DNA of 64,000 bases from Allolobophora icterica. Taxonomy: Eukaryota > Annelida > Clitellata > Crassiclitellata > Lumbricidae. The notes below the pieces were generated by a model. That model made no database searches. It saw only the letters and a program-made list of their open reading frames with translations, and was not told the origin of the DNA. The translations under genes were made by a program, and so were the position numbers. Each line of letters begins with the position of its first letter. Position 1 is the first letter of the stretch. Below, in pieces: positions 3,238 through 61,300 of the stretch. Location of the stretch: contig OY744613.1 of assembly GCA_963556255.1 (NCBI GenBank), forward strand, positions 37,129,555 through 37,193,554. Direction: 5' to 3'.

Positions 3238-3539
3238 GGCCACCATTTTTGGACTAAAATTGCTTCATGCAGGGAACAGATTATTCAAATACGCAGACGA
3301 TTGCTATTTGGTGATTCTTGCCACTGACTCTGAACTTGCTTTTTAATAGAGTGCACTGTACTAAGTTTTGTGATATCATTTCCCCATACAAATGTATCAA
3401 CGCTACAGGGGTCAGGACTTGGGCCAATCCACTTTTTGGCCACCATTTTTGGACTAAAATTGCTTCATGCAGGGAACAGATTATTCAAATACGCAGACGA
3501 TTGCTATTTGGTGATTCTTGCCACTGACTCTGAACTTGC
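3238..3539. repeat. 102-bp direct repeat at exact 200-bp spacing
   Basis: Bases 3238-3339 and 3438-3539 appear identical by eye (GGCCACCATTTTTGGACTAA ... TCTGAACTTGC). Each copy carries the RT active-site box. Confidence 0.85.
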
Positions 3540-3883
3540 CCACATAGCTGAATGGGATAGAAATTGCAACTTGATCCTTAATCATAGCAAGTCGTGTGAA
3601 ATCATAATCAGGCGTCCCTTAACTAAAATTAAAGATAACCCTCCGCCCATTACGGGGATCGTACGGGTAAATGATTTCAAAATGTTGGGAGTCACTCTTT
3701 CCGAAAGAATTGGTTTCTCCTCGCACATTAACAACATCTGTTGTAAAGCTAAACAATCCTTTTTGCTCTGCGAGTCCTGATTTCGCATGGATTAACTAGA
3801 AGCCGCCTCCATGATGTTGTACGTTGCACCACAGTGGCAGAAATGTTGTACTCATCTCCAGTCTGGTGGGGATTTACCAATGG

Positions 3884-10277: not shown

Positions 10278-10628
10278 ATCTATAGCGGCGGTCATGTTGG
10301 TTATTATGTAATGGTGAATAGTTCGCACAACTATTTCAGAATTTTTTTGATCGGCTAAAAATCGAAAATCGCGGGAACCAACGTAATCATGGGCGACCAA
10401 TCGAGGCAAACTGTGCGAGACAACTAAAGTCAGATTCGGAAATGATATGTAAATCCCATAAAACTAGAGACATACGAATTTCACAGACCAAAGTTTAGAC
10501 AAATTTCAACTGATGTTTTCTGCCACCGAAAATAATCGACCGAAATTTCATTCTTCGGCTGCGATCGATTGATTGGCAAAACACAATTTCGACGAATTTT
10601 TATCCAACAGAGTTTTTTTTGGTGGCTG

Positions 10629-10891
10629 ATCAATCCAAGAGCCTATTAGTATATGGCATCAATCCAAGAGCCTATTAGTATATGGATCAATCCAAGAGCC
10701 TATTAGTATATGGCATCAATCCAAGAGCCTATTAGTATATGGATCAATCCAAGAGCCTATTAGTATATGGCATCAATCCAAGAGCCTATTAGTATATGGC
10801 ATCAATCCAAGAGCCTATTAGTATATGGCATCAATCCAAGAGCCTATTAGTATATGGATCAATCCAAGAGACTATTAGTATATGGCATCAA
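10629..10891. repeat. 28/29-bp tandem repeat, nine copies
   Basis: Unit ATCAATCCAAGAGCCTATTA plus GTATATGG, with or without a final C. Units are nearly identical, with one G/C-to-A change in the last one. There are no spacers, so this is a minisatellite rather than a CRISPR-like array. Confidence 0.9.
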
Positions 10892-11926
10892 TAGATCGAT
10901 AGCAGATAATTTCGTTCTGCCTATAGTGCGATTACAGAAACTGCCTACTGGACCAGTAACTCATATAAGAGGCTGGCCAAATAAAGAATTAGGCCTACGT
11001 ACGTAGGCCCTATTAGCTATAATCTTTGGCTAATTTTTCACTTCACAACTGAAACACAATTCAATCGCATTCTGTCTGCAAAGAATTTTGTCAGATAACG
11101 AACGATTGTCTTCTTGTCTTTTTTCGTTCACATTTGTAGTAACGACCTTCAGAACTGGTTGTTGATTACTTGATTGTGTCTCTTCTTTTGTCTTCTTGCC
11201 AATTAGTCCGATAATTACACACTCTATAGCTGTCCTCGCCTTAGAAGATTGATCGACCGACTGATAGTCTTCTTCTTTTGACATGCTGCTGAATCCACGG
11301 CATACAAAGCGACTTCCCAACTCCATAATGAACAATCTACGCACGTCACCTCGACTAGGACTCAAGAATACGCTCTCCACTTAAGATGTTTATCAAGACG
11401 GATAACTGAACTGCTGTGTACAGTAATGTCGTCCAGACAGATAAACATTGACAGACTGTGGCCAACGACGACGAGTTCTGTCCATCTTTAACACTTTAAC
11501 GACGAGCTGCATTGATTTCCCAGTCGCTTTAGGGGCCTACACTTTCGTCGTTAAAGTGTTGAGCAGAATACTGGCAGCAGTTTGGCTATAATGGGTCCAC
11601 AGCTCTTTCGTCTTGTTCTAATCTAAAATGACAGTTGGTTTGTTATCCATCTGCGAAACTGTTTCCATGTCCTGATATCCTGAGTGTTTCTGTTCGCTGT
11701 TTTCGATGGAACATAGGAAGCAATTGTGGTCTGTCCACTTAAGCCAAATTATTCACGTTTGCCATCAGCGACCATCTCTCTGGGAGTCACAGTAGGCCTA
11801 TTTTTTTGGGCAAGTTGCCATTGATGTTAAAGTTCTTCTGAAGCAAATCTTGAGCGAGTGTAGGCCCTATACTGTGTTAAACTTTGTCCTGAGATATAAA
11901 TGTGTTGACAGAAATCCTTCGTAATT
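10892..11926. other. No supported gene
   Basis: A 116-codon minus-strand frame (11030-11380) has no recognisable domain or splice context. A short hairpin element lies at 11488-11563. Confidence 0.45.
11488..11563. mobile_element. Tiny hairpin element (TTAACACTTTAACGACGAG family), copy 1
   Basis: TTAACACTTTAACGACGAG at the left pairs with CTTTCGTCGTTAAAGTGTT at the right, giving inverted arms around a 35-40 bp centre. Related copies are at 47550, 52930 and 61288. Confidence 0.6.
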
Positions 11927-18034: not shown

Positions 18035-21000
18035 CTGCAATCAACAACAACATTGAACGCCTTCAATAGAGACATTCTATCTCCACAGCCAACGATCAGA
18101 CGCTGAAGCTATTTATACATCAGTCGTTTTGTTTCTTGTCTTCTTCTTCTAAGTATTTATACGAAACGGCCACAGAACAAAACCACATCATAGCCTAGTG
18201 ACACTTACACATAATCTTTACACCTATGATCTATAGCGTGATAGTGATGGACCTATGAAATGACTCCAGTTATGTATATTGATGTATTGATGTATTTGTT
18301 CATTGAGACAACGGCAGTGTAGAAGTTTTCGGATTTCATTGGATTGATAATAACATTATTGTAAATATTTTCATAAGATGATTTTGTGCAAATTCTGACA
18401 GAAACAGCCCCATAAAAGAAGAGGTCAAAGAAAGAATCAGACAGACAGAAAGAGACTGGAGAAGTGATACGTAATCCAGACACACAGACACACAGACAGA
18501 CAGACAGACAGACAGACCGTAGTTGTGTTCTTACCGCCGTGTACTCTGAGTAGATACGGTTGTTGAAGGTGACATTAATCGAGGCTCCTTCGTTCAGTGG
18601 ACATAACTGTGACGACAGCATTCCCATCATCTTCATCTTCATCGAACTCAATCGTTTCTCCAGGAAGTAGCGAGCATATCCGTCGCTGCAGAACTTCGTT
18701 ATCAGTTTTCCTTCGAGGTTGAAGGCGTAGTAGCGACCGACGTAGCGCAGGACGTAGTAAGGAGTGTCTGATGCACAACGAAATCATTTGGCTGATCATA
18801 CATGAATGGAGCGTTTACAGCTAACATACATCCATGTCTACAACTGCATTCTAAATAATTTCTATCAGAGCTTCAACTCTGGACTGTTCTGATAAAGGCA
18901 GTTAAATATCTACAAGCCTATCGAAACTCTCGGAACGGTTTTCCTCTTTAGCCTCAACTGTTGTCTTATCTCAAACATTCTCCTAAACCGAAACCGAAAC
19001 CAATCTTCCTACACCAAACATCAGTCCACCGAAACGGTCCTCGCCTCGTTATACAGCAAAATTTATACAACAAGTCTCTTGTTTGTGTCTTTTGGACATC
19101 TCTGCCGCCTTTGACACAATAGACCATGCTATCCTTACTAAACGCCTTTCCACTGTAGGCCTGTTTGGAATCTCTGGTACTGCTCTATCTTGGATCAAGT
19201 CGTACCTTTCCTCGCGTTCTTTCACCGTTAATGCCACTGGTCACTCCTCTAACTCGCACACCCTGACCGGCGGTGGTCCTCAAGGTTCTGTCCTCGGTCC
19301 TCTGCTGTTCATCCTTTACACCTCCCCACTCAGCAAACTCATTTCCTCATCCTCTGTCGATCAACACCTCTATATTGACGATACACAACTGTTCATATCT
19401 TTCTCCCCTCACACCCTTCCAGATGCACTAGATCATCCATGTAACACCATCACCCAGATATCAGCCTGGATGACTGTCAACCTCTTATGTCTGTTCTGTT
19501 CTGTTCCTAGCCATCCTCGAATCGAGAGTCGGCCGCATCATGCACGATGTTCCTCCAACGCTTCCTGTCCTCCGTCAACCTTAGCATTTCTTCCAGTGTC
19601 AACCCAGCCCATTCCTTTATGTTATCCTTATCCAGCCACTTCGTTCTCGGTCTTCCCCTTTTTCGATCCCCTGGAATCGTGCCCTGTATGATCTCCTTCT
19701 CTATACATGTTCCCTCCCTTCTCATGATATGTCCAAAATAGATCATTTTCCTTTCTTTTACTGTTCTCAGCAAATTCCTCTCCACGGCCGCAGCCTCCAG
19801 CACCCATTCATTTGTCCGCTTTTCCATCCACGAAATTTGCATGATCTTATGTCTAAACCCTTCAAACACAGAATTCCTCATCATTGGCCTCTGCGAGCAA
19901 TTAAGCAGACTAACCTCTCCTTCTGACCTATCGCCAACAGATCTCACTTCCCCCGTACTTTACTCTTCTCCTGTCCACAATCTTGCAATCATCTTTGATT
20001 AAAAAAACCTTACCTTTGCCGACCACATCACCCAGCTATCTCGCACGTGCTATATGCACATTCGTGACCTTCATCGATTGCGCCAATACTTGATTACAAA
20101 ACCGCCTGCACAATAGCCACCTCAACTGTTCATTCCAAACTCGATTACTGTAATTCCCTTTTCTACAACGTCGACTCTTCTCAAATAAAATCCCTCCAAA
20201 CAGAGTCCAGAACTCTCTAGCCCTCGCAGTCACCAAAACTCTCAAACACCACCACATACCCCTCTTCTCAAAGAACTTCATTGGCCCTCAGCGCACCCAT
20301 TAAAAATTGTCTCTTACCTACAACATCGTTCAAACCTTTCAACCCTCTTACTCTCACCAGCTATTCACCATCCAACCGCCCAGATCTACTCGTTCAGCAT
20401 CATATCTTTCTCTATCTTGGACTCCCGTCTCCTCCTTTCTAAAATTCTGCAACCGTCTCCCGCTTCTTAGTCTATGCTGCACCTGGTCTTTGAAATGAAC
20501 CCCAAAAGATCTCTTCCGGGTCAATCTCCTCCTCTCTCCTATGTCAGTTATCCGCTAGCCCTCTCTTCTGAAACTTTCCACTAACGACTGAAAACCAAAC
20601 TCTTCAGGCATTCCTTATACCTTGATTCTACCTCTTCGCCACCACATTAACACAATCATCAACGATTTCCACTGCAGCACTGGTACGCTGTCTCATCGGC
20701 CTGACCTCTCCCGATTCTGACCTGGCACCGAAGCAGACAAAACCATCTGGTTCCAGCGGACTTGACTTGATATAGCGCCAGTGTTGAGCTGGTCTCCCGA
20801 CTTGGCTTTTATGTGGCGCCCATCAACAGAAATTTTTGAGATTTACATTACATTACAAGCAATGCACTAGTAATGTTAGCAACGTTAATGTTACAACTAT
20901 GAACCGAAGGGAGTCTTGTGGTGGATGTGTGTGTGTGTACCTGCTTCTGTGACGATGGTTGGTCCAAGAGGCAGAGGTGTTGTCCGAGGAGCATTCGTTG

Positions 21001-24000
21001 TTCCTGCTGAGACTGGTAACGAGAAGTCAAAGAGTGGCATCGTTGCGTTCAGTTGCTGGTCTTTATCGTACACTGATCATCAACAGAACTAAACCAGCTG
21101 CATATACATGTACGCATACGTATGTGTACATTATGAATGTATGTATGTATGTATGTATATATGTATGTATGTATGTATGTATGTAAGTATGTATGTATGT
21201 GTGTATGTGTGTATGTGTGTATGTATGTATGTATGTATGTATGTATGTATGTATGTATGTATGTATGTATGTATGTATGTATGTATGTATGTATGTATGT
21301 ATGTATGTATGTATGTATGTATGTATGTATGTATGTATGTATGTCAGTGTATATGTAAGTGTCCAATATAATCTAAAAACTTATATAGCGCCAATGTCCC
21401 GATGCTCAAGGCCTCAGGCGATGTGAATCAGGTCAAAAGCCAATAAGACGACCCGGAAGCAGCCTACGGAGCCTCGGTTCGTTTCGTCCAGGAAAAGATG
21501 AGTTTTTAGTTGAGATCTGAAGGCCAGAACAGACTTTATAGAACGAAATTTTGCCACATTGTAGGGCCAGCAACAGAAAAGGTGCACCAACCGAGAGCTG
21601 TCCCTGCTCTCGAAATATCTGTGTGTATGTATGCATGTATGCATGCATGTATGTATGTATGTGTGCATGTTTGTCTTTATGTATGCATGTATGTTTGCAT
21701 GTATGCATGTATTTATGTATGTATATAGGCCTATAGGCCCTATGTGTTGGTGCCATCATAGTGCCGTGCAAATAGCTAACAGAGACATTTCTCGCCAGCC
21801 TCAGTTGAATATAGCACGTTACCTGAGAGAATAGAAGAACGAATAAGCGGAGGAAGCTCATTCCAAAGAGCAGGGCCAATGGAAGCAAAAGACCTAGATT
21901 GAGCCAGAGAAGTCCTGACACGGGGAACGAGGAGGTCCAAACGGTCAGATGAACAAAGAGAAGAAGCAGAGTGAGGGCGATGAATAAAGTCACATAAATA
22001 TTTCGGAGCGAAACTAAGTTGAGCCTTAGAGACAAGGATGAGGACCTTGAATTGGATGTGGGCAGAAAGCGGAAGCCAGTGAAGTTCTTCTGCCATAAAG
22101 GTGGTGATATGAGAGAATCGAGGAAGACGATTTTTGCTTTATAGATTGGAAGGTTTACGATTTCAGTAGGCTCCTATATGAGAATGTGCATGAATGAATG
22201 GCTATTGTGTATCTTAATAAGTCGGTTGACTTACGATATCTGTATCCTCCTAGGTATCCATATGCCGTGTGATCCTGCGTTCCATAGCCATAGACGAAGA
22301 CGGCGTAATAGGCGTTCGAATCAGAACTCGTAACCGAGTGGAAACCTGCCTTGAGTGGAGCGATGATCACCGAATAATCGGAGAAACCGTCAGCGTTGAT
22401 GATGAACGTGGTGCCACCTGTCGAATAAATAGAAATATCAGGCGTACATTGAGTTGTATAAGTCCTGGTTAAGGTTTGCTTACGACACATAATTATATTG
22501 ACCAGTGACGCCATAGTCTACAATGGTTATCCGGATGAACGGTGAACCTCCGTCTCAACAGGGACATAGTTCTGAGTCCTCTAATGATCTGGGATTTAAA
22601 AAAGTGAGCAGATCAAAGAGTGGCAAAGGTTTCGCTATCTGCTCTTATAGCCAGATTAAAAATGGAATTGATGGAAGACTCATTGGAGTTAAATAGCAAC
22701 CAAACTGAACCAAACCAGTAAGTCAGCTGCCGAGTTACACAGACTATAACCTGAATACCCAATATTATTTTTGACTTTGGTTCATAGACTGGGAGGTTTA
22801 CGATTTCAGTATAGGCTCCTATTCGAGCATTCAAGGTGATCAACATTATTCGACGATTTAACGGGAATAATGTATTGCTCCAGTAAGATCGATCTTTTCT
22901 GTTTGGTTAAGACTATCAGCAGTCTTGTTGTCAAGACCTTAGACCTCAAGACCAAGACCAAGACCAAGACCTTGAACCTCAAGACCAAGACCAAGACCAA
23001 GACCTTGAACCTCGAGACCAAGACCAAGACCAAGACTTTGAACCTCGAGACCAAGACCAAGACCTTGAACCTCAAGACCAAGACCAAGACCAAGACCCAA
23101 AAAATCGCAATCAGGTCAAGACTTCTAAAAATTGTCAAGTCGGAATATTCGCTATTTTAATGAAAACATGAGTCTTTTATTTTATTCAAGCAAATTAACT
23201 TTAAATGCAAACTGCAGAGAAATCCGAATTTGTATTCAAAAGTCCTTCATGCAAACTATTATTCCAAATGCCTTTTGTATTTTATAAAAACCAATTCGCT
23301 CAGAATTTTCTGACCAAGACGTGCCTGGTGGGCCTCATAAAAATTCCGCCATGTGAAAAAATATGTTATCCAGGTGCTGAAGTCGCTGACACACACAAAG
23401 AGTAGTTTTTCAAGCACTGGATGTAAATGTACAGATAGTGAGTTCTTTTGAAATCTTCCCATGGTTTATCATACCGTCTGATACAGAATAACTGTTGCTG
23501 CTGCCAATGGGTTTCCCTGACCAACAAGACTTGTATCTATCCATAGATATTGGTCGTATGATGCAAGCAGGCTTGATACAGAATTCTTGAGTTCTGTTAA
23601 ATGACTCTTTATATTGACAGCCGGTCTTGGTCTTGGTCAAGACTTTGAACCTCAAGACCAAGACCAAGACCTTGAACCTCAAGACCAAGACCAAGACCAA
23701 GACTTTTGGTCTCAAGACCAAGACCAAGACCAAGACTTTTAAAAACGAACTCGAGTGCACTCGAGACCAAGACCATGGTCTCGAGGACAACAAGACTGAC
23801 TATCAGACAACAATGCATAGTGTCTGTTTCTAAATGTAAGCCTATTACGTGTACATGTATGTGTGTTTGTATGTGAGTGTGTGTATGCATGTGTACGTGT
23901 ATGTATGTGTGTGTGTATATGAGTAGTTTCTGTAAGTTGAATATGCTTACCGATTGAAGCTAACGGAATTCCGTCGAGGTATATTTTGCTCATGTTGACA

Positions 24001-26192
24001 TCAGCCGTCTTGGCGACAATGGTGATGCCATTGACACATTCGTAGTCTGACCCGTTCTTGTAGTGGCGACTCGTTGAGAAGCGGACATTCTGCGGGTAGT
24101 GATTCAGAGCAGGCACTGTGACCATGAACGGATCCGGTAGAGCAGTCTCGCCTGGTCCACTGGCGTTCAGCACTTGGAAGCTTGGATCGTACTGCATAAC
24201 GAGACAATCAGAAGAGCAGTTGACCATGACGACGACAGCGTTCGCTGTTGTGATGTTTTCCAGAGATGCTTCGTCCCATTCACCACGAACCAACGTCACT
24301 CTGCGGAATATGTTCCACGTGCTTGGCTTGTTGTTGGCATCGAAAGATTGGAAGGTGTAGGTGACGTTGGTGTCTGTCTGAGCAACCACTCTCGTCCTGT
24401 AGCCGACAGCCCACGGTCTTCCGTAGAACGAGGCCATGATGAAGGTCATTCCCCACTGCGTAACTGGAGGAACTTGTTCAATGAGGTGATCACAGAAGAG
24501 AGTGCCGACTGGAACCATAGCACACGCGTGTCCGGAATAGACTGCGACTGGTTGCGATGACGAAACGTAGACTCCTGTGTAGTCGAAGTCAATGGATCCA
24601 GCGTGGTAGACGTCGTTCGCATTCAATGTCAGATGCAGCAAGCGGTAGCCAGAGTTCCCTCGGACGTAGCTGATCGAAATACACGTATCGTTGAATGGAC
24701 TGGCGATGGAGAAGGAAGCCTTCATCGGAAAGAACGCCGAATAGGAAGCCAAGAAGAACGTCTTACTTAGCGCTGTGATCGGAAGGGCGAGGTATCCATC
24801 TCCGGTTCCCGTCTCAGCCTTGTTCGCCTGAACGGAAATATCCATTTCGGACGATATGACGATTGCTACATTGAGCTTATCGTTGAGAGGCGACGCCAGA
24901 TCTTGAGGCATGATTCGGTTGACGTACTGGAAGTTGTTGGAGGGATTCAGTTCAATGATATTCGTGTAGTTGAGAGGAGAGTTGTACTGAAGCTTAACTC
25001 TTCCGATGACGGAACTCGTTATGAAGATCTCTTGAATGCTTTGCTGCGGGTTTGGCTTATCCGTTGAAATGTTCATGAACGAAAGATAGAATAGTCTGCC
25101 TTCCAGTCCTTCAAGGAAAGAAATAATGTTATTTAGTCAATCCAAAAATATAGCGCACTTGGAGTGCCATAGAAGCATCCCCAACGTATTTTTCTTCCTT
25201 AGCCATAACCCATAGAAACGGCGACTGTGCAGTTGTTGTAATGACAATAATTCATAACAGCCCCGTAACTAACGGAACTTCTTCTACAGGGTGTTTTAAG
25301 AGGCAAATTGTTAGCGCAGATATTAGGATTTACGTAATAAACAGATTTCAATTGTTTTCAAAAACGTGACCTGAATAGATGTTGCAGTCTGTACTACTAT
25401 CGTCGTTCTGAAATGATGCTAACAGCTCAGAAAGATACACATGTATCATGTATGCCATTTAACTCATTTAGAATACATCAGTGGCTGGCGTTATTTCAGT
25501 AATTACTCTGAGAGCAGGCATCCGATAAAAGATCTGCCTATAAACCTTCATTATGAGTTAGAATTGTATTTTTTAAAATTTAAAACAGTAATTCGAACAA
25601 AATTACCTTCTATGCTGTGAAAACCTAAAACAAAACACACACAAAATTGATAAAAATGAAACATATTGATCAGATTTAGTGCAGTAGGCCCTATATTGGT
25701 CTACAAGTAGAAGTGATCGATGCTTTCTGGAATGATTAACAAGAAAACATCTACTGAGATCATTAGCATTCGAGACCATGAGCGTGGAGAATTTCAGAAA
25801 CTCAGTGGAATGTTGCGTTAACGAGACGGGAAACTTATGAATGCCATGAATTTCAACTGCAATTCAAATCAATAGAAAAATTCTATTTGTTGGCTTTCAC
25901 AAAGTATCCTTGTGGATTTCAGTCGATCTTGTGCTTTACATTAATTAAACTTTAACATTTAGACCATAATGAAGTTAAAACATAACCAATCGCTGAAAAT
26001 TTCGATTGTCAATTTGACATCGATTCGTTTTGTCTGCCAACATAAAAACACAGTAACAAGATTTAACTAAACAATTAGCATTCGTTAAATGGTCGTTTCT
26101 AGCCATTTCATTGAAATGTAAAAATGTTGATTTGTATTGTTTTTAAAATACTCACATGTGGACAAAATGAACAGAAGCGTTCCGAATAACAT
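17666..26192 (-). CDS. IgGFc-binding-domain extracellular protein, 7 exons, 709 aa
   Basis: Joined exons on the minus strand: 26192-26156, 25624-25607, 25108-23951, 22417-22235, 21072-20941, 18767-18535 and 18034-17666. The sum is 2130 nt including TGA, every junction is GT-AG, and phases match (1,1,1,1,1,0). Residues 1-16 are a signal peptide ([12 protein letters not shown]...). Residues about 19-465 match the IgGFc-binding N-terminal domain: [26 protein letters not shown] and [17 protein letters not shown] are its usual landmarks. Many N-x-S/T sites fit a secreted protein. Residues 510-680 form a Cys-containing distal part I do not recognise. Residues about 685-698 are hydrophobic ([14 protein letters not shown]) followed by a short polar tail, suggesting a membrane or GPI-type anchor. 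In vertebrates the domain occurs in FCGBP-like mucus proteins; the ligand here is unknown. Introns 3, 4 and 5 are filled with transposons. Confidence 0.85.
18478..18518. repeat. (CAGA/CACA)n microsatellite in intron 6
   Basis: Short CAGA tetranucleotide run just downstream of exon 6 in transcription order. Confidence 0.85.
18535..18767 (-). CDS. IgGFc-type gene, exon 6
   Basis: 233 bp with acceptor TTGTGCATCAG and donor GTAAGA. It encodes [20 protein letters not shown] and [15 protein letters not shown]. No known domain was recognised. Confidence 0.8.
19075..20862 (+). pseudogene. CR1/L2-type non-LTR retrotransposon RT, interrupted (intron 5)
   Basis: The plus strand reads [56 protein letters not shown] and [13 protein letters not shown], the fingers/palm order of CR1/L2-like RTs. 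The active-site box has YIDD instead of YADD. A foreign minus-strand fragment at about 19500-19947 interrupts it. The thumb resumes at about 19990 ([20 protein letters not shown]) and decays through stops to a 3' tail ending in CATTACATTACA near 20862. It lies antisense in intron 5 of the IgGFc-type gene. Confidence 0.8.
19500..19947 (-). pseudogene. Second non-LTR element, C-terminal fragment nested in the CR1/L2-type copy
   Basis: Minus-strand frame of 146 codons reads [36 protein letters not shown] and [16 protein letters not shown]. The last part reads [20 protein letters not shown]. The I-S-W-x-x-K-x-T-N-E ... Y-x-G-H-I-x-R ... G-R-R/P-x-x-x-W-L pattern is the common C-terminal tail of RTE/jockey-like RTs. 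It splits the flanking RT into two parts, so it inserted later. Confidence 0.75.
20941..21072 (-). CDS. IgGFc-type gene, exon 5
   Basis: 132 bp with acceptor TTGATGATCAG and donor GTACAC, phase 1 at both ends. It encodes a Thr/Pro-rich linker ([17 protein letters not shown]) between the main domain and the distal part. Confidence 0.8.
21137..21345. repeat. (ATGT)n microsatellite in intron 4
   Basis: About 50 tetranucleotide units. The Tyr-Val-Cys-Met and Thr-Tyr-Ile-His frames across it are artefacts. Confidence 0.95.
21370..22110 (-). pseudogene. CR1/L2-type RT C-terminus (intron 4)
   Basis: The minus strand reads [50 protein letters not shown] and [19 protein letters not shown]. This is the familiar tail HWLPV..RI.FK...L....AP.YL..L ... 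PR.RT...G.RSF...AP.LWN.LP. A TGTATGCA microsatellite (about 21620-21725) splits it from its last segment. Same strand as the host gene. Confidence 0.8.
22235..22417 (-). CDS. IgGFc-type gene, exon 4
   Basis: 183 bp with acceptor TTATTCGACAG and donor GTAAGT. Reads [20 protein letters not shown], then AGFHSVTS and [10 protein letters not shown], the usual end of the IgGFc-binding domain. Confidence 0.9.
22920..23798 (-). mobile_element. hAT element, GGTCTT-arm family, 879 bp, perfect 8-bp target duplication (intron 3)
   Basis: Termini are CAGTCTTGTTGTC (22920) and GACAACAAGACTG (to 23798). ACTATCAG flanks both sides (22912-22919 and 23799-23806). It carries both hexamer arrays (22940-23100 and 23618-23745), the CTCGAGTGCACTCGAG palindrome and the transposase tail on the minus strand. 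It lies 152 bp from exon 3 of the IgGFc-type gene. Confidence 0.92.
23259..23462 (-). pseudogene. hAT transposase C-terminal dimerisation domain remnant
   Basis: Minus-strand [20 protein letters not shown], then a frameshifted CVSDFST and [20 protein letters not shown]. It is the same tail as at 9425, with additional decay. Confidence 0.75.
23951..25108 (-). CDS. IgGFc-type gene, exon 3 (main domain)
   Basis: 1158 bp, residues 19-404, acceptor TTCCTTGAAG and donor GTAAGC. Contains [11 protein letters not shown] at the start, the SGHxCxxVP...CDHLxEQxPPV core and the [12 protein letters not shown] end. The open frame continues past the donor only into intron and transposon sequence. Confidence 0.9.
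25607..25624 (-). CDS. IgGFc-type gene, exon 2 (18-bp microexon)
   Basis: The TGTTTTGTTTTAG acceptor precedes GTTTTCACAGCATAGAAG, followed by the donor GTAATT. It supplies CFHSIE and keeps phase 1 on both sides, finishing the signal-peptide region. It is inferred from splice sites and phase and needs transcript support. Confidence 0.65.
26156..26192 (-). CDS. IgGFc-type gene, exon 1 (coding part)
   Basis: ATG at 26192-26190 encodes [12 protein letters not shown] plus one base of codon 13, then the donor GTGAGT. A TTCTTTTTCTTAG acceptor ends 16 bases upstream of the ATG (AG at 26209-26208), so the 5' untranslated region is probably split by an intron. Confidence 0.75.
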
Positions 26193-28845: not shown

Positions 28846-29189
28846 AAGCAACTGATCCGTGGCTGTTAAAGATTCAAGATGTTTCATTTATGGACTATAG
28901 TTAAACAGGTTGAAGCGACGCTTTTTAAGGGCTTGGTCTCACATACTAAGAATACCCTGGAGGTCTTTATGCTGAGGCCGATCTCATGAGCTCTGATTCT
29001 GTACAACGCCCATCTGCGACTCCAATGCTCTCAGATTTTGTGTCTTCAATGTCTCTCAACCGTGGCATGACATCTACGAAATATAACGCTTGGACGATAT
29101 ATATATATATATTGTATATATAATATTTACGCATATAATTATTATAATTATTACAAGCACCTTTAACGCGCACAAGGTCACACAGAAAT

Positions 29190-30628
29190 AAATAAATATC
29201 ACTCATTTTGCCTCTATTTCTACTGATTCTTCTTATATTCCTCCAGTCCGTAAACTTACTGTCCCTCATAATCCTCAGTTCAGTAATGAATTTAGAATAT
29301 TCAATCTGTTAGACCACTTGCACCATGCTGCTGATGGATTAGACGGCCTTCCTGCTTGGTTCTTACGACTAACTGCACCTATCTATTCCGAAGTTATTAT
29401 CCATCTTATTAACTCCTCACTTGCTACCTCTCATATGCCCTCACAATGGAAGACTGCTATAATCAGACCTGTTGCGAAAACTGATCCTCCTACCTCCATG
29501 TCAGACTTTAGACCCATTTCTGTAGTACCTGTGCTTTCCAGACTTGTTGAGCGTGAAGTTGTCCTTAAATACCTATACCCTGTTCTCTGTGAACCTCCAC
29601 CTCATCAACAACTTCTTGACCAATTTGCTTGTCGACCCACTGGATCTACTACATCGGCCCTTATTGCAATTTTACACCAAATCTGCAGTTTATTACTTAC
29701 TGAACCTTCTGTAACTCTTGTTGCTCTTGATTTTTCTAAAGCTTTTGACTCTGTTCGACATGTTACACTAGCTCAAAAACTTTCTCGACTTAACCTTCCT
29801 GACAATATCTATAACTGGATCATTGATTTCCTTGAACAAAGGTCTCACATTACTAGGTTTGCTGGTAAATTATCTTTACTAAGGATAATAAATGCTAGTT
29901 TTGTTCAAGGATCAGGATTTGGACCTATTGCTTTTATAGTTAATGCCTCTGATCTTCACCCTATTTATGCTCAGAACTTGATGAGTAAATATGCTGATGA
30001 TACGTACCTCATTATTGGTGCCTCAATGAGGCATACTTTACTTCAAGAATTAGATTCTGTTGCTTTGTGGGCATCACAACATAATCTTAAGCTTAATACT
30101 AAAAAATCTTGTGAAATGATTTTTACTCGACGCTCTTCAGATTTTGTTCTCCCACCTCTTCTACCAGATATCACTCGAGTTACTTCTATGATTATCCTTG
30201 GTGTTAATAATAATGATTTAAAGTCAACTTCTCATATTAATAATATCATTAATACATGCTCTGGTTCCTTACAAGCACTTAGAGTACTTAGACTTCATGG
30301 CTTATCTAATGCTTCCTTACATGAAGTTGCTAGAGCTACTACTGTTGCTAGACTTTTGTATGCCGCCCCGGCTTGGTTGGAATTCGCCTCGTCTGCTGAT
30401 CGAGCTAAGATTGATCGCCTAATTCGTAAAATGAAGCGGTTGGGTTTCCTAGACCAAGATTTTCCATCGATTGACATTCTTGTTAAGAGAGCTGATCAAA
30501 GACTATTTCGCTGCATTAAATTTAACCCTTTTCATGTTCTATTTTCACTATTCCCCCCCCCCCAAACTGCAATACCATATGATCTTAGGCCTAGACCACA
30601 CAACTTTTCACTTCCTACTGAAGATTAA
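29190..30628 (+). CDS. Non-LTR retrotransposon reverse transcriptase (family A), best-preserved copy
   Basis: An open frame runs from about 29191 (after TAA) to TAA at 30626-30628; the first Met is at 29318 (436 aa). Order: HHAADGLDGLPAWFLRL, MPSQWKTAIIRPVAK, DFRPISVVPVLSRLVE, FACRPTGSTTSALI, LDFSKAFDSVRH (first catalytic Asp), VQGSGFGP, MSKYADDTYLII (intact catalytic YADD), LKLNTKKSCEMIF, ILGVNNNDL and the C-terminal LRPRPHNFSLP. The endonuclease and ORF1 are missing, so the copy is 5'-truncated, although the RT frame is uninterrupted. Its 3' end is TTTGAATAAACGAAT plus (AT)n. It is probably a recent insertion and a mobile-element gene rather than a host gene. I cannot place the clade from sequence alone. 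Confidence 0.85.
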
Positions 30629-30802: not shown

Positions 30803-31221
30803 AACTCATTGCTGCTGCCAAGAAAAATCTAGTCGCCAGATGAAGAGCAGTTAGTAATCCAGATGTTTGAAATCCAATGAGAAATAGGGAGTTTTGAGGA
30901 GTTTCTCAAAAGAAGAGATGTATAGAGTTCGAGTATCAAACAGACATTGGTAGTTGGTTTCATTCTTTGGGTCATCAACACGAAATGCACGAGGGCCCAT
31001 GACAGTGCTACATCGAAGCTCAGTCAAAAACTCATACCCGAAAATCTCATGGTCACAGAATAATACATGAGTCTGTAACGCAATTTTCCGAAGGTGTAAA
31101 GTCGACGAGTCATCTACTACAAGAGCACCATTGATCCAACAGCCACAGCAAAAGCTTATAGGTATACCCTCAAATTTCTCACCAATAAATATCACCAACT
31201 CATTGCTGCTGCCAAGAAAAA
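30800..31221 (-). mobile_element. CR1/L2-type 3' fragment flanked by a 28-bp direct repeat
   Basis: Bases 30800-30827 and 31194-31221 are the same 28 bases (ACCAACTCATTGCTGCTGCC...). Between them the minus strand reads TELRCSTVMGPRAFRVDDPK and SFEKLLKTPYFSLDFKHLDY, the C-terminus of the RT family also seen at 54250-54459. The repeat is best read as a target-site duplication made on insertion into the plus-strand element that resumes at 31194. Confidence 0.75.
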
Positions 31222-31740
31222 GTACAAATCTTTAGCTTCTCTACCCAAAGCGCCTCTGGAAAGCCGTTAACTCTCTTCTCCATCGTAAGTCTCCCTCTCC
31301 ACTCCCAAGCTGCCTACCCTCTTGAGTCCTCTGCCACCCAGACCTTCTTCTCGGACGAAACCTCATCCCTTCGCTTCTGCTCTTGATTCACACTCCCCGA
31401 TGACTCCTCCTCCAGCAGAAGTCTACCTCCTCCTATCAAACCCATTGCTTCACTTCTCACTCATCACTCCCAACCTTTCCTCCAGCCCCGAATCAAAGTG
31501 CCATTCCTCGTAACATCTCTTCCAACTTGATTCTATCGTCACCTCTCTACTCGAAGGTTATGACTCTGTCCTCGTTCCTGTTGTCATCAACATTGTCAAT
31601 TTTTCTCTGTCTCTGCTGGTCATTTCCCCCCCCCCACGGCCTTTAAACACTCGCTTGTCAATGTGCTTCTTTAAAAAAGCAATTCTTGACAAAGAAAACC
31701 TTTATAACTAGTCACCTCTTCAATCTTTCCTTTTTATCTA
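31194..31740 (+). pseudogene. CR1/L2-type RT, N-terminal part (decayed)
   Basis: Across frames the plus strand reads LIAAAKKKYKSLA, PKAPLESR, SPSPLPSCLP, FASALDSHSPMTPPPAEVYL, VLVPVVINIVNFSLS and ILDKENLYN. This order (AAKxxYY.., KALW..VN.LL, ..DP..T.LLK.....++P.IT.IVN.SL, LD...L.NYRP) is the region upstream of the CR1/L2 RT palm. Multiple stops show it is dead. Confidence 0.65.
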
Positions 31741-32150
31741 AGCTATTAAGCTAACATTCCTCGCTTCGCTGAACATAGTTAATTCCTACAGTCAAGAATG
31801 CGCATATATACAGTATAGACCTAGATACAGTTATTTATATGACCCTAAAATACTAGAAATTGTTTAACCTATATATCTGATAAATACACACGTGATGTGC
31901 ATATCATTTACTATGCAGTGCGATGTATCTATGTCTATCATTCACATTAACGTCGCCAATTTATCCAAACACACAGACCAGTTTTGTAGTAGTTCCAGTG
32001 TTTAAAGACATCTTATGGCTACCAGGGCCGTGACGTCGCCCTCCTCCTTTATCATGGCTTGGGACTAGCACTGCCTGGCACTACTGGCACGACGAGTCGT
32101 GGCGGTTAGTTAGTTTTCCAGTTCTCGCATTTGACCCGGTTTATGGTCAT

Positions 32151-52430: not shown

Positions 52431-53990
52431 GATAACTCCATCATCCAGCAGCCCCACCCCACCCCACCCCAGATGGTAGGAGACAAAGTGCATAGATATA
52501 AGTCGATATCAGATATCAGTGTCCAGATATCAGTCGAGTCATCAAGACAACACAGTGGCAAATAAGTCATAGAACGTCTTTATGGTCGATGATGTCGCTC
52601 CAAGACTCTCCTCTTCACTCCTTCATTCCTTTACTGAATCCAAGATATTCCAAGATATTGCGTCTGTAAATCTGAGCCTCGGTTGTCCATTCCCTGAGTA
52701 AGGGGACTAACCCAGTGGCAAGAAGAAACTCATAAAAGCACATTTAGTGGGTCAAGTGCTGATGCTACCAAGTGGTAGGCAGTTGCATGGAGTGGGATTT
52801 GACATCTGCCTGTCCACCCTTTGTCCAATCCTATGATAACTGTGATTGTGCTCAGGCACCGACTTCTACAAGACTACTCGTCTCAAGTCCCACCCTTACA
52901 ATTTCAGAACAGGATTTCTTCAGTGTAACATAACACTTTAATGACAAGAGTGTACTAAAACTGACTGGGAAACCAATGCAGCTCATAGTCAAAGTGTTAA
53001 ACAACTGACAGGTGAAACGTGGACCCAGAAGGTCTCTGTCTCTCTTTGTTTGTGTGTGTGTCTTTCTCTGTTTCTCTCTCTCTGTCTCTCTCTCTCTGTG
53101 TGTCTCTCATGAAAGCATCAGAGGCAAGGAATTCTCACTAGATATTCCACAGTGCAACATGAAGCACATTTTCATGCAGTCAGTGCATCCAGTAGTTTTT
53201 ATATAAGAGATATTCCTAAATTAGCAACACAGCACATTTAGACACTTAATGAAACCAACAGCAAAATAAAACTGAATAATACTAGCACGAGTTGATATAC
53301 TAAGAAACGGTCAAATAAAACCAATAATAAAACTAAAAAGTAACATTAATGTGCATCAAAGTGCGCAATGCTAACACAAGTAGAAATAATCAGAATAATA
53401 GAAATAAATCGCATTAAGAGAGAAATAAGGAAAGTAGCTTTTCTGATCATCTGAACTGCTACTAATAATTGAAAATTTAGCAGATCATAAACATTTGGTG
53501 CTTTAAAAGGAAATCATGCACCAATAGCTGAGACTAACAGACAACGATCATTAACAACCAGATGAGATCTACAGATTAAGCCATGCTTTCAATAGATCAA
53601 GACTACATGTACAACAATCTTCACAACTAATAATAAATATTACTAAAGGCAGAAAAAAGCGACTTTCTGGTGACAATTATTCAAGTGTGCATAGTTTTGA
53701 ATGTGGAAATATGACGATGTAAGCAAAAACAAAGTCAACACATAAAGTCTCATATAATTCAATGACTTCTGGCATTCTGTGCATCTTATCAAATCTTATC
53801 CAGTCTACTGACTTACATAATGACATACATAGCATCATCATAACAGAAGGAGATACGGATGGTCACTAACACTGGAACTGTCAGGTCAGCACAGACTGAG
53901 AGACAAGAACGGTCAGTGTTTATGGCTGGACAGCTGTTAAATCCCTTGCCCCTTCCCATGCATGGAAACACATTGGTCACCCAAACAGGT
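52431..53990. other. No supported gene
   Basis: Tiny hairpin element at 52930 and a CT/GT-rich stretch at 53035-53108. No coding evidence. Confidence 0.4.
52930..53001. mobile_element. Tiny hairpin element, copy 3
   Basis: TAACACTTTAATGACAAGAG ... CATAGTCAAAGTGTTAAA, related to the 11488, 47550 and 61288 copies. Confidence 0.55.
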
Positions 53991-54537
53991 CATTTGTCAA
54001 TCCAAACAGTGTCATATTACATGACCTATGCACAGCAACAGCTGCCAATCCCTCTTGAAGACCACATTATAAATTATGTGGCTCACGTGGTGCTACATGC
54101 ATCTTCTCATTCAAACTCATTAACTCTGCTCCATCAGCTGCACTGGCTTCCTGTAGAATTCAGAATTAGATTTAAACTGGCGTGTTTTACCTATTAAACC
54201 CTCACATTGTGCATTCCTACCTACCTTCAACCACTACTCTCCTTACATCTTGCCATGTGGTCTGCAGTCTTTGGTTATGGGTCTTTTAGTTGAGCCTAGA
54301 TGTAGCACTGCCATGGGCTCTCGTGCATTTCATGTTGCAGCCCCCAAGGAATGGAACCGACTACCAATGTTTATCCATTGCTCAACCTCTTCTTCTTCTT
54401 TCAAGAAACGCCTCAAGACTCACTACTTCTCATTGGCTTTCAAACATCTACATATCTAATATCTCTTCATCTGGCGACTAACTAACTGTGCCTCAGATTC
54501 GCATGTCTGTGTGACTTTGCACGAATTAAAAATGTTC
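53990..54537 (+). pseudogene. CR1/L2-type RT C-terminus with (ATA)n tail
   Basis: Reads LHQLHWLPVEFRIRFKLACF, then after stops PRCSTAMGSRAFHVAAPKEW, NRLPMFIHCST and FKKRLKTHYFSLAFKHL with a stop. The order HWLPV..RI.FK ... G.RAF..AAP..WN.LP ... F...LKTH.F is the CR1/L2 tail. The 3' untranslated part runs to TTAAAAATGTTC and then an ATA repeat. Confidence 0.8.
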
Positions 54538-55211: not shown

Positions 55212-55352
55212 TTAGGAGGCATTCAACTGATTAGCATGCTCAGTGCATTTACTCGCGACCTTTACCTCATCATGGGGTAACTTCCAGCCACAGCCAGGCA
55301 GTGGAAGCCCATCAGGCCCCACGGGACAGGGTGCATCCAGCCCAGGAATCCC
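55212..55352 (-). CDS. MACIT collagen, terminal exon with conserved Cys motif
   Basis: Acceptor [38 protein letters not shown], then an open frame to TAA at 55214-55212 (46 residues). A donor-like GAG|GTAAAG at 55265 leaves open that the exon ends at 55266 and splices further. Confidence 0.8.
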
Positions 55353-58300
55353 CTAAGCGGAGACACCACACACACACACACAGACAGACAGACAGAGTCA
55401 AACAAGGATGAAGCAGAAACTCAAAACAGCCGTCAAGTATTTTGTTTTAAAAGAAAATGATCAATCATCAAAAGACAAAACCTCAGGAAAACCCTCTCCA
55501 CAATGACAGTGCAAAACAATTCATTGTAATTAGCAACCTTTATAGTGCCGATGTCTACTGCACAAAGCATCAACCGATGGCACATTACAATCAAGATGCA
55601 GTCAGATCGATAACCAGAAGTCTGGGTAAGCCAACTGAAAAACTTCCAACTGATATTGACTAAGAACAGTTCTAGTTTTTGACCAATGTGTTTGCAAGAG
55701 ATATCCTTGACAACATGTATGCATGAGATTCATAAACACTACTTAAGTTACAAGTAGTATCAGCCAACTCAACAAATGAGTCACCCAGTTTCAAAGCCAT
55801 CTAAATTTCTTAAGTTGCTGAGGAGTGCCAGTAGTAGAAATTCAGTCTTCAATGAGTAAAGAAGAAGTTTACTGACCACCATCCAAGACTGCACCTCCTC
55901 CAAGGCAGTGGACAACAGCAGCACAGACAAGGCACAAGACAAAGTGTCAAACAGAATGTAGACTTCAGTATCAGAATAGAAATGATATCCCAGGGAATCT
56001 TCAAGCAGTGTTCCTAGTGCTGCAGTGTGTATAATGTAAACAAAAGACGACCAAGCACAGAACCTTGTGGAATACCAAATGCCAACAAAGCATGAGATCA
56101 ATAGTAGCCATTAAAACGTACTTACTGAATGTGTAAACTAAAATAAGTACTAAACCGATTCAGTGCAGGACGAGAAATCCCAAACCAGTGCTGGAGACTA
56201 AACCACTTCAGTGCAGGACGAGAAATCCCAAACCAGTGCTGGAGACTAAACCACTTCAGTGCAGGACGAGAAATCCCAAACCAGTGCTGGAGACTAAACC
56301 AATTCCATGCAGGACCAGAAATCCCAAACCACTGCTGGACACTAAACCAATTCCTTGCAGGACTAGAAATTCCAAACCAGTGCTGGAGACTAAACCAATT
56401 CCATGCAGGACCAGAAATCCCAAACCAGTGCTGGAGACTAAACCAATTCCATGCAGGACCAGAAATCCCAAACCAGTGCTGGAGACTAAACCAATTCCCT
56501 GCAGGACCAGAAATCCCAAACCAGTGCTGGAGACTAAACCAATTCAGTGCAGGACCAGAAATCCCAAACCAGTGCTGGAGACTAAACCAATTCCCTGCAG
56601 GACCAGAAATCCCAAACCAGTGCTGGAGACTAAACCACTTCAGTGCAGGACGAGAAATCCCAAACCAGTGCTGGAGACTAAACCAATTCCATGCAGGACC
56701 AGAAATCACAAACCAGTGCTGGAGACTAAACCAATTCAGTGCAGGACCAGAAATCCCAAACCAGTGTTGGAGACTAAACCAATTCCCTGCAGGACCAGAA
56801 ATTCCAAACCAGTGCTGGAGACTAAACCAATTCAGTGCAGGACCAGAAATCCCAAACCAGTGCTGGGGACTAAACCAATTCAGTGCAGGACCAGAAATCC
56901 CAAACCAGTGCTGGAGACTAAACCAATTCCACACAGGACCAGAAATCCCAAACCAGCGCTGGTGACTAAACCAATTCAGTGCAGGACCAGAAATCCCAAA
57001 CCAGTGCTGGAGACTAAACCAATTCAGTGCAGGACCAGAAATCCCAAACCACTGCTGGATACTAAACAAATTCCATGCAGGACCATAAATCTCAAACCAG
57101 TACTGGAGACTAAACCAATTCCTTGCAGGACTAGAAATTCCAAACCAGTGCTGGAGACTAAACCAATTCCATGCAGGACCAGAAATCCCAAACCAGTGCT
57201 GGAGACTAAACCAATTCCATGCAGGACCAGAAATCCCAAACCAGTGCTGGAGACTAAACCAATTCCCTGCAGGACCAGAAATCCCAAACCAGTGCTGGAG
57301 ACTAAACCAATTCAGTGCAGGACCAGAAATCCCAAACCAGTGCTGGAGACTAAACCACTTCAGTGCAGGACGAGAAATCCCAAACCAGTGCTGGAGACTA
57401 AACCACTTCAGTGCAGGACGAGAAATCCCAAACCAGTGCTGGAGACTAAACCAATTCCATGCAGGACCAGAAATCCCAAACCAGTGCTGGAGACTAAACC
57501 AATTCAGTGCAGGACCAGAAATCCCAAACCAGTGTTGGAGACTAAACCAATTCCCTGCAGGACCAGAAATTCCAAACCAGTGCTGGAGACTAAACCAATT
57601 CAATGCAGGACCAGAAATCCCAAACCAGTGCTGGGGACTAAACCAATTCAGTGCAGGACCAGAAATCCCAAACCAGTGCTGGAGACTAAACCAATTCCAC
57701 GCAGGACCAGAAATCCCAAACCAGCGCTGGTGACTAAACCAATTCAGTGCAGGACCAGAAATCCCAAACCAGTGCTGGAGACTAAACCAATTCAGTGCAG
57801 GACCAGAAATCCCAAACCACTGCTGGATACTAAACAAATTCCATGCAGGACCATAAATCTCAAACCAGTGCTGGAGACTAAACCAATTCCTTGCAGGACT
57901 AGAAATTCCAAACCAGTGCTGGAGACTAAACCAATTCCATGCAGGACCAGAAATCCCAAACCAGTGCTGGAGACTAAACCAATTCCATGCAGGACCAGAA
58001 ATCCCAAACCAGTGCTGGAGACTAAACCAATTCACTGCAGGACCAGAAATCCCAAACCAGTGCTGGAGACTAAACCAATTCAGTGCAGGAACAGAAATCC
58101 AAAACCAGTGCTGGAGACTAAACCAATTCCATGCAGGACCAGAAATCCCAAACCAGTGCTGGAGACTAAACCAATTCCATGCAGGACCAGAAATCCCAAA
58201 CCAGTGCTGGAGACTAAACCAATTCCATGCAGGACCAGAAATCCCAAACCAGTGCTGGAGACTAAACCAATTCCCTGCAGGACCAGAAATCCCAAACCAG

Positions 58301-61300
58301 TGCTGGAGACTAAACCAATTCCCTGCAGGACCAGAAATTCCAAACCAGTGCTGGAGACTAAACCAATTCAGTGCAGGACCAGAAATCCCAAACCAGTGCT
58401 GGAGACTAAACCAATTCAGTGCAGGACCAGAAATCCCAAACCAGTGCTGGAGACTAAACCAATTCCCTGCAGGACCAGAAATTCCAAACCAGTGCTGGAG
58501 ACTAAACCAATTCAGTGCAGGACCAGAAATCCCAAACCCGTGCTGGAGACTAAACCAATTCAGTGCAGGACCAGAAATCCCAAACCAGTGCTGGAGACGA
58601 AGCACAAGAACAGAATGGTGTACCGTGTCAAAAGCAGCAGACAAGTCAAGAAGAACAAATACGTGATGATGTCTGATGATGAGCAGCCCTATTGGTAAAG
58701 CATAACATTTGCTTGTTTCCATTGGTGCCCAATGTGTACAGTGTTCAGCTGTAATCACACTGTCAATTTCGGTAAATGCCAAGGAAAAAGAAGCGTTTCT
58801 TTTGGAAATTTTACCATTAGTATTACTGTTTCAGCCTTCAGATGAAGAAAGCAAGAAAAGAATGTGAAGATTTGACAGAGAGATATGTCAGGTGTCGCAG
58901 ATCTACAGAGATCTATCTAGCTGTAAAATGGAGAGATAACTCAACCCCCATCTGTCTATGTTCAGCTGAGGTTTTGCCTGATGATGTCTTATTAACAGTT
59001 TCACCATGATCAGACTTTTCCAGAACTGCTTTCACCACTTGAAACCAGGTGGGTCTACCACATGAACTATCATTCCAGACACAGAAGCACTGGCATGACA
59101 TACCAAAGAACAAACAGTGTAGGCATGAGAAAACTCTGAGAGCCAAATCAGAGCACACATTTGCTCAAGCTACGACATACAACACTACATACATGGTATG
59201 TGCGTTTGTTATATGAAGCTATGTTTGTTCTTTGGCATGGCATACATTCTGAGCTGACATTGTGAAATGTCCACTGCCCACTCAGTGGCTTCGGAATATC
59301 AGTTCAATTTACCTGCTCCAATTGTTAATATGACTGGAAGCAAAAATAAAAGCTCAGGAATTTCTAGATTACATTTGCAGAATAAACCAAATGTTAATGT
59401 TGAAACACAAAGAGAAAGATTCTTTTCCCATCTGTTATTAATCAAAATAAAATCTAAGCTAATAAATTGTAATTTAACACAAATCAGGCAGATGCAACAA
59501 AGTAAAGAGATAGAAACTATGACTGGACTAAATGCACCTATCTTCATAAAGATTAAACGCTACATATTCCTTGGGTGGATCATATAATCAACAGCGGCAA
59601 TGCGTCAACTCATGGACCACCTCAGTATCTGCAAAACCTTCTCATTATCGTAAATGAGTGGACTTAACTATATCACAATAAGGCATTAATTGTAGAAATG
59701 TACAATCAACCTAATCTGACGTCTACTATTAGCAGTCACTGCATAATATTTATGACCTACTACTGCCTGCAGTGGCACAAAGGCATGAACAGAAAATGAG
59801 TAGAAATGACTTTCTCTACCTGCTCTCCCTTTTCTCCCTTGGATCCCTTCTTTCCACGCCTTCCTCTCAGACCCTGAAAGAACAAGGAACAAAATGTCAT
59901 AAAAATCCACCTCTGAAAGATCAAGATTTTACAATATCAATGAATTTCATCTAATTTATTTGTTACTTGGAGTACACATCTAAAGAAGTGCATATGTATA
60001 CATATAAAGAAAACGGATAACTATATTAATAATGTGAAAGGCTGGACTGTATATAATATTGGCATAGCTGGTTTGCTGAATGTCTGTCGTAAAATGAGAC
60101 TGAGAGAGGAAGACATGTAGTATGAACAAGGGTCCTAAAAGAAGACAGAGGGATACAGGAAGAATGGGCAGGGGTTCACTGATTGCACACCACAATAATG
60201 ATAATAATAAAATAATAATAATAATATTACCATGGCGCTCGGGTTGCTGTTTGACCTGGGACGTTACAGTAGCCCCTTCTTACCTACCCACAACCGCCAC
60301 TCGAGCGGGGGGTGTGGTGAAACTGGCCGAGTTCATGAAAAACTCGAAAAAGACCCAATTGATGCAATCCTATCATTTTGTCCCATTGGCTTTTGAAACA
60401 TTGGGACCAGTTAATGCTAAGGGATTGGCATTTCTTGCCGACCATGATGTCTCCTGTACCAAACCTCTGGAGACTCAAGAGAAACTAGTTATTTGTTTCA
60501 ATGCCTATCCATCGTTATTCAACGTTTCAATGACGTCGCTTTCCACAGCACTTTCGTTGTTCAAGATCTTGACAAGGACGGCCACTCCACAGTCAACACC
60601 ATTAATTAGTATCTGACCCCAGAGGGATCATACATACCTCGGGTAAAAAAATAATGATAATAGAAATAAAATAACAAATAATAAACTCAATTATTTGTGT
60701 GAATCGAACGGACTGTAACAGTTTCTGTAAAACTGTTATAGGCCACATAAAACTGTACAGTCCGTTAAAAAAAACTAAATGGGTTGGTAAAGAAATGTGA
60801 ATATTTCATGAATGTCTTACCATTACACCTTCATCACCCTTCTGTCCTGTAGGACCCTAGAAAAAACATAAGAAAACAGTTCAAAATAACAGTCAGATAG
60901 ATCAACTATACAGTATACTATACATGTTTAGTTGCTTTGCTAATGCCAATGCATCTGATAAACCTTTGCTTAGGATATCTTCATCCTCAGCTGTCACAAA
61001 CAAATGAATGAAGGAGTGAATGAAGGAATGAATGAATGAATGAATGAATGAATGAATGAATGAATGAATGAATGAATGAATGAATATGAAAACAAATGCT
61101 TTCTTACCATTGGACCAGGAATTCCCTACAAGATGAAAAGATACATTGGTCAATCAACTTCATCTCAGAAAAAAACACTGCTGCTTAAATAAATAGGAAT
61201 AAATGAAAGAAATAAAAGAAAATAAAGATCAGTTAAAAATGAAACCACAGATCTAAAGAACACAATGAATTAATGTGACACAGCAGCTTAACACTTTAAC

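What the first reader, a model, noticed from the sequence alone, without database searches (positions are those of the whole stretch)
56122..58782. In-frame 48-bp satellite born inside a reverse transcriptase, with a 768-bp higher-order period
A 16-residue piece of a CR1/L2-type RT ([16 protein letters not shown]) is repeated about 51 times without breaking the frame. Variant units recur exactly 768 bp apart: GTGTTGG at 56761 and 57529 (48-bp units), CTGGGG at 56861 and 57629, CAGCGCTGGTGAC at 56951 and 57719, and CCTTGCAGGACT at 56353, 57121 and 57889. Blocks of 16 units were therefore amplified as a whole, as in centromeric satellites. Both strands stay open. The array lies in the last intron of a collagen gene, where it could affect splicing or expression, or be length-polymorphic.
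Basis: partly seen in the sequence, partly recalled or inferred. Interest (0 to 1): 0.8.

Follow-up and report, generated by a model that had tools for sequence, protein, structure and literature searches.

The report
Minisatellite born inside dead LINE transposon
A 48-base piece of a dead jumping gene inside a collagen-gene intron was copied head to tail until it reached 51 copies, and then blocks of 16 copies were themselves duplicated; this is a clean example of a known, ordinary way in which repetitive DNA arises.

Summary
Window 56149-58598 is 51 head-to-tail copies of a 48-bp unit. A 16-unit (768-bp) period is real (z -7.2, 0 of 1000 shuffles) but covers only about 2.3 copies, 56341-58125. 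The unit lies between RT motifs A and B of a decayed LINE on the minus strand. The A-B distance is 858 residues, exactly 58 + 50 x 16; 102 of 108 homologues with both motifs have 58. In the window's own 1.118-Gb genome the unit-unit junction (up to 3 mismatches) occurs 50 times, all here, and 39 of 39 sibling copies found have one unit. So it is a single-locus minisatellite that most likely grew in place after insertion, not a centromere-like satellite. Multi-unit duplications explain the 16-unit blocks. Open frames say little: 69% of random looped 48-mers are open on both strands, and variants are 22 nonsynonymous to 4 synonymous. The array does multiply weak acceptor-like sites, about one per unit, so a splicing effect is possible but untested. 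A minor surprise: one sibling carries other tandem duplications breaking near the same RT spot.

The parts
56149..58598 (-). array of 51 units of 48 bp; on the RT strand each unit reads about [11 protein letters not shown](L/W/G/R/V)NWFS; the strand given is that of the RT and of the collagen-like gene
56341..57108 (.). higher-order block copy 1 (16 units)
   Evidence: 8 differences of 768 to copy 2, 4 of them in one swapped unit (unit 10 vs 26)
57109..57876 (.). higher-order block copy 2 (16 units)
57877..58125 (.). higher-order block copy 3, partial (about 5 units; the far end is a soft boundary)
   Evidence: 3 differences of 249 to copy 2
58599..58776 (-). RT segment upstream of the array, with motif [10 protein letters not shown] at 58624-58650; homology is weak beyond about 58700
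   Evidence: tblastn of LINE homologues; motif position
55675..56148 (-). RT segment downstream of the array: motif B GIPQGS at 56059-56076, two in-frame stops, at least one frameshift, damaged YADD region
59820..59873 (-). collagen-like exon [18 protein letters not shown], upstream of the intron
55353..59819 (-). intron of 4467 bp, GTAGAG...CTTAG, 55% of which is the array
55212..55352 (-). likely last coding exon, [24 protein letters not shown]...NAS stop

Best explanation
A single-locus minisatellite expanded in place from 16 codons of a decayed LINE reverse transcriptase. (1) A LINE copy inserted in the last intron of a collagen-like gene, in sense orientation, and decayed (anatomy shown). 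(2) One 48-bp stretch between RT motifs A and B was tandemly duplicated at breakpoints that share only about 2 bp (breakpoints read from sequence; slippage or end-joining repair is inferred). (3) The duplication grew to 51 units by unequal exchange or slippage between units (inferred). (4) At least one, probably two, later events duplicated blocks of 16 units, giving about 2.3 higher-order copies, followed by a few point mutations and one unit-sized conversion or swap (pattern shown, mechanism inferred). (5) No selected function is needed: most likely neutral intronic DNA, possibly length-variable, with a side effect on splicing not excluded.
For: Exact arithmetic: motif A to B is 858 aa = 58 + 50 x 16; of 187 listed homologues 108 have both motifs by pattern and 102 of those have 58. 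One-unit control: 39 of 39 sibling copies that one search found (fetched as 38 stretches) hold one copy of the unit, 44-48 bp aligned. In a flank-only BLAST 29 of 38 stretches share at least 20 bp with both of the window's flanks, 32 the 5' and 34 the 3' one. Genome-wide junction search: 50 matches, all in this array, 0 for the control pattern; 51 units need 50 junctions. Order of events: the two full block copies differ at 8 of 768 sites, against a mean of about 3.0 of 48 between units. In a toy neutral model, duplications of 1-2 or 1-4 units gave such a lag in 0 of 1358 and 0 of 1349 arrays, exponential blocks in 34 of 1263, uniform blocks in 105 of 983 (smaller first run). Variants against the unit: 22 N, 4 S, no stop, chance of no stop 0.25. 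The relic's flanks carry stops and a frameshift and average 79-81% identity to the 20 siblings compared of 39.
Against: No related species and no second haplotype are held, so growth in place is inferred from paralogues. A 2.45-kb array could be miscounted by assembly; no reads were available. Siblings were found because they match flank plus unit, and only 40 of 261 candidates were scored. The toy model's rates are arbitrary, and even block-sized events give so strong a lag in only 3-11% of arrays. The N:S count takes one unit type as ancestral and treats two neighbouring sites of one codon apart. The array carries 55 acceptor-like sites against 9 in the rest of the intron, so 'no effect' is an assumption. 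The founding step leaves almost no homology, so its exact mechanism is open.
Confidence: 0.88

Rival explanations
1. The array was already present in the LINE before it inserted (a LINE lineage with internal repeats), and the intron copy is one of many.
For: Internal tandem repeats spread by transposition are described for LTR12 (PMC3389668, section 3.3).
Against: 39 of 39 siblings found have one unit, and the junction is found at this locus only. A single-copy lineage that never spread further is not excluded.
Confidence: 0.03
2. A selected feature: a coding tandem repeat or a regulatory array acting on the collagen gene (splicing, expression).
For: Frame open over 902 aa; sense orientation, 55% of the intron; 55 acceptor-like sites in the array, about one per unit, against 9 in the rest of the intron, with a scan that finds the gene's own acceptor.
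Against: Variants are 22 N to 4 S against about 75% N expected among non-stop changes; random looped 48-mers are open on both strands in 69% of cases; donor-like sites, at a looseness that finds the gene's own donor, are fewer in the array (13 against 46), so exon definition lacks partners; no folding signal (z -0.66 and -1.30).
Confidence: 0.08
3. An assembly artefact: unit number or the 16-unit duplication created by mis-assembly.
For: Short identical units are hard to assemble; no reads were available.
Against: The block copies differ at 8 of 768 sites with unit variants in consistent order; both flanks are colinear with the RT; the same assembly gives one unit at the 39 siblings.
Confidence: 0.07

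Closest known systems
Single-locus TE-derived minisatellites (Ahmed and Liang 2012, PMC3389668; abstract, sections 3.1, 3.3, 3.4 and most of 3.2 read)
   Same: A piece of a transposon expanded locally at one site; most arrays without flanking direct repeats. They report 7,276 of 31,472 human minisatellites as TE-derived, 5,747 of 5,932 clusters at one locus only, and one AluJo array of 17 units of 52 bp.
   Different: Here 51 units (they give means of 2.30-2.42 for Alu subfamilies); not human; a coding RT segment; an internal 16-unit block duplication.
LINE ORF2-derived satellites: chicken HinfI/CR1, PROsat of Phodopus, Pvc20 of seal (listed in the review PMC9659126; passages, section 2.2)
   Same: Tandem DNA with similarity to LINE coding sequence.
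   Different: Those are listed as satellite families; this is one locus with the parental element still around it.
Higher-order repeats inside genes: hornerin (39-bp unit, nine units to a block, then higher), NBPF 3mer (PMC9584774, passages only)
   Same: Blocks of several units duplicated as a whole, outside centromeres.
   Different: This one is intronic with no sign of selection on a peptide and only about 2.3 block copies.
Centromeric alpha-satellite HORs (171-bp monomers; PMC9584774, passages only; their great length is recalled)
   Same: A unit-level and a block-level period.
   Different: One 2.45-kb locus in a gene intron; nothing links it to a centromere, and centromere position was not tested.

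Membership tests
TE-derived minisatellite | tandem units of minisatellite size | tested here: met
   48 bp x 51
TE-derived minisatellite | unit is a segment of a transposable element and the array lies inside one | tested here: met
   RT homology on both sides, exact 58 + 50 x 16 spacing, 39 sibling copies with one unit
TE-derived minisatellite | single locus | tested here: met
   50 of 50 junction matches at this locus (up to 3 mismatches, one assembly)
TE-derived minisatellite | length polymorphism between individuals (usual, not required) | not testable with these tools
   one assembly, no reads
Satellite DNA with higher-order repeats (centromere-like) | statistically supported multi-unit period | tested here: met
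   lag 16, z -7.2, 0 of 1000 shuffles
Satellite DNA with higher-order repeats (centromere-like) | long arrays of many block copies | tested here: not met
   about 2.3 block copies; one locus
Satellite DNA with higher-order repeats (centromere-like) | location at a centromere | not tested
   the array lies in an intron between collagen-like exons; the centromere of this contig is not known
CR1/L2-type LINE (host element) | RT with motifs A and B in order, relatives with endonuclease plus RT domains | tested here: met
   best hit P0001 carries PF03372, PF14529 and PF00078
CR1/L2-type LINE (host element) | clade placement by RT phylogeny | not tested
   the clade name is recalled from motif resemblance; no call names it
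Protein-coding tandem repeat | purifying selection on the repeated peptide | tested here: not met
   22 N to 4 S of 26 distinct variants; no stop, but that has P 0.25 anyway

The most novel reading that the evidence does not exclude
The RT segment ending in GGTTTAGT is a recurrent tandem-duplication site of this LINE family. Two copies on different contigs, here and at L044, carry different tandem duplications (48 bp; 32-36 bp; 666 bp) with breakpoints, by eye, within about a dozen bases of it; if these arose independently, the element carries a built-in seed for minisatellites.
Probability: 0.15. Interest if true: 0.45.

Novelty: new member of a known kind. Interest (0 to 1): 0.27.

Why it matters
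It is an unusually clear record of how a minisatellite is born. The parental element, its one-unit state in 39 sibling copies, the founding breakpoints and a later block duplication can all be read in one genome. It would be a good test locus for how tandem arrays start and grow. It does not change what is thought about such arrays.

Tried and rejected
RNA/DNA structure: no strong signal. Splice signals: a first pattern scan found none in the array, but it also missed the gene's own donor and acceptor, so it is withdrawn; the scan set on those sites finds 55 acceptor-like sites in the array against 9 in the rest of the intron, and 13 donor-like sites against 46. This raised the odds of the functional rival from 0.05 to 0.08 and lowered the main confidence from 0.90 to 0.88. 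Rfam: no match in the window at gathering scores. Pfam on the 902-aa ORF: no family; a 100-aa flank piece gave RVT_1 at E 0.07, below the gathering score. Exact 41-mer in viral and prokaryote contigs: none. Other array-bearing proteins: two searches (67 proteins; 120 listed of 144), each scoring only the 7991 or 7993 best candidates, gave RTs; among the 187, a self-repeat scan flagged 4 (P0016, P0036, P0064, P0093), none at this site, and a loose unit pattern matched twice in one (P0065, 143 residues apart). Ten proteins were read, most picked for wider query coverage; each holds one unit. Organism name: not obtained. The bacterial promoter/terminator scan does not apply to this genome and was ignored. 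768 = 4 x 192 (a nucleosome-like spacing) is arithmetic only. A genome-wide search for other duplications ending in the GGTTTAGT motif was asked four times and never answered, so the hotspot idea is untested beyond the 39 siblings.
Full report
What is there. The array runs from 56149 to 58598, 51 units of 48 bp with no indels. Cut into units, it shows one strong period: units 16 apart differ on average at 1.49 of 48 sites, against 3.03 (sd 0.21) when unit order is shuffled; none of 1000 shuffles reached this, and none reached the value at lag 32. At base level the 768-bp match is dense from 56341: two full block copies (56341-57108 and 57109-57876) differ at 8 of 768 sites, four of these in one unit that was swapped for another unit type, and a partial third copy runs to about 58125 with 3 differences of 249. 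Units 1-4 and 42-51 do not share the order.

What it is made of. On the minus strand the unit reads [16 protein letters not shown], and both flanks are reverse transcriptase: LDLSAAFDT (motif A) before the array and GIPQGSVLG (motif B) after it. The distance from A to B is 858 residues, exactly 58 + 50 x 16. Of the 187 homologues listed by two searches (the second listed 120 of 144), 108 have both motifs by a simple pattern and 102 of them have a distance of 58; the rest are at 51, 57, 59 (two), 60 and 61. So the array is one ancestral segment plus 50 extra copies, with no net length change elsewhere between the motifs. The best homologue has endonuclease and RT domains (P0001); the clade name CR1/L2 is recalled, not tested. 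The element is dead: the downstream piece has two in-frame stops, a frameshift and a damaged YADD region.

One-unit control. The genome that holds the window (1,117,693,669 bases, 328 contigs, unnamed) gave 63 matches to a flank-plus-units query, 24 in the array and 39 elsewhere; only 40 of 261 candidates were scored. All 39 were fetched, as 38 stretches. Each copy has one copy of the unit, 44-48 bp aligned (20; all 38 stretches). The flanks are not shared by all: in a flank-only BLAST 32 of 38 stretches share at least 20 bp with the window's 5' flank, 34 with its 3' flank, 29 with both. A search for the unit-unit junction with up to 3 mismatches found 50 places in the genome, all in this array, and none for the control pattern; 51 units require 50. 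A junction made from the common sibling unit would differ from the pattern at 2 sites by eye, so a duplicated sibling of that type should have been seen. The array is therefore a single-locus minisatellite, and growth after this copy inserted is the simplest reading.

How it arose. In the window's copy the sequence just before the unit and the unit's end share only GT (looser: TT-GT), and there is no shared run after the breakpoints; most siblings end in CGC before the unit and share less (junctions printed). So the founding duplication did not need a direct repeat. That is also the common case in human TE-derived minisatellites (PMC3389668 section 3.4). The growth to 51 units is inferred. For the 16-unit order a toy model is informative: duplications of 1-2 or of 1-4 units never gave such a lag (0 of 1358, 0 of 1349 arrays of similar diversity), blocks of exponential size gave it in 34 of 1263 and blocks of uniform size in 105 of 983. 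A smaller first run gave the same picture. In this model multi-unit events are needed, and they suffice without a centromere-like process, though such a strong lag stays a minority outcome. The rates are arbitrary.

What does not follow. Open frames: 95% of random 48-mers of the window, looped, have an open frame on some strand and 69% on both (20,000 draws). Of 26 distinct variants 22 are nonsynonymous, 4 synonymous and none a stop; about 75% nonsynonymous is expected among non-stop changes, and no stop has P 0.25. This count takes one unit type as ancestral. It gives no sign of purifying selection. Folding is unremarkable (RNA z -0.66; DNA z -1.30).

Splicing, a result against my first reading. 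The intron is 4467 bp, GT...AG, and the array is 55% of it. My first scan saw no splice-like site in the array, but it would have missed the gene's own donor (GTAGAG) and acceptor too. With patterns loose enough to find those two, the array holds 55 acceptor-like sites, about one per unit, against 9 in the rest of the intron, and 13 donor-like sites against 46. So the expansion multiplied a weak acceptor-like motif in sense orientation. Whether it is used cannot be told without RNA data; these are crude patterns.

A side observation. One sibling stretch, L044 on contig C5, holds two LINE pieces 666 bp apart (667 positions with 1 mismatch) and, next to the unit, a different short tandem duplication of 32-36 bp, 2.4 copies. 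Their breakpoints lie, by eye, within about a dozen bases of GGTTTAGT, where the window's unit also ends. Another sibling, L016, has a 65-bp duplication upstream. So 2 of 38 sibling stretches (about 570 bp each, L044 1232 bp) carry a tandem duplication with a period of 30 bp or more; six others have only periods of 11-15 bp. Of these copies only the window's ran to 51 units. Whether the spot is a true hotspot could not be tested: the search did not complete.

Comparison. TE-derived minisatellites are common: 7,276 of 31,472 in human, 5,747 of 5,932 clusters at one locus (PMC3389668, section 3). LINE-ORF2-derived satellites are listed in a review (PMC9659126, passages and section 2.2); another review lists CR1-C and LINE-1 derived satellites (PMC6947457, passages). 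Higher-order repeats inside genes are described for hornerin and NBPF (PMC9584774, passages). The eight paper searches were general; I saw no paper on this array in their listings, which cannot show absence.

Verdict. A real and clean single-locus minisatellite with a short higher-order segment, born inside a decayed LINE. It is a new member of a known kind.

Noticed in passing
L044 (C5:24895355-24896586) and L047: A sibling LINE copy has its own 32-36-bp tandem duplication and a 666-bp direct duplication (1 mismatch in 667), both breaking near the GGTTTAGT where the window's 48-bp unit also ends.
   Followed up: partly
window 2383, 2922, 6052, 9147, 9855, 22932, 23637, 38777, 39448; L047 2105, 2747, 9426: A 27/33-bp minisatellite family of CAAGAC units with a TTGAAC spacer occurs at nine places in the window, in both orientations, and at three in a stretch of another contig: a dispersed minisatellite, unlike the single-locus array.
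   Followed up: no
window 23745-25136, strand -: A 464-aa open frame with an IgGFc_binding domain (PF17517, E 2e-37); closest homologue P0188 is 97% identical over 81% of it.
   Followed up: partly
window 3391-3750, 18899-20623, 21779-22132, 29156-30490, 31079-31828, 53781-54453: Six further LINE RT relics in the 64-kb window (tblastn E below 1e-5); the one at 18899-20623 shows a single unit at the homologous site; the others were not looked at there.
   Followed up: partly
window 10628-10892: A 29-bp tandem repeat, 9.2 copies at 97% match; a 57-bp (29 + 28) period scores slightly higher, so it may have a two-unit order.
   Followed up: no
window 56149-58598, positions 14-15 of the unit as cut on the plus strand: One codon of the unit (L/W/G/R/V) carries much of the variation; all four bases occur at position 15 among the 51 units.
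   Followed up: no
window 56149-58598, strand -: Each unit carries a weak acceptor-like motif (pyrimidine-rich stretch before CAG) in the sense of the collagen-like gene: 55 sites in the array against 9 in the rest of the intron.
   Followed up: partly
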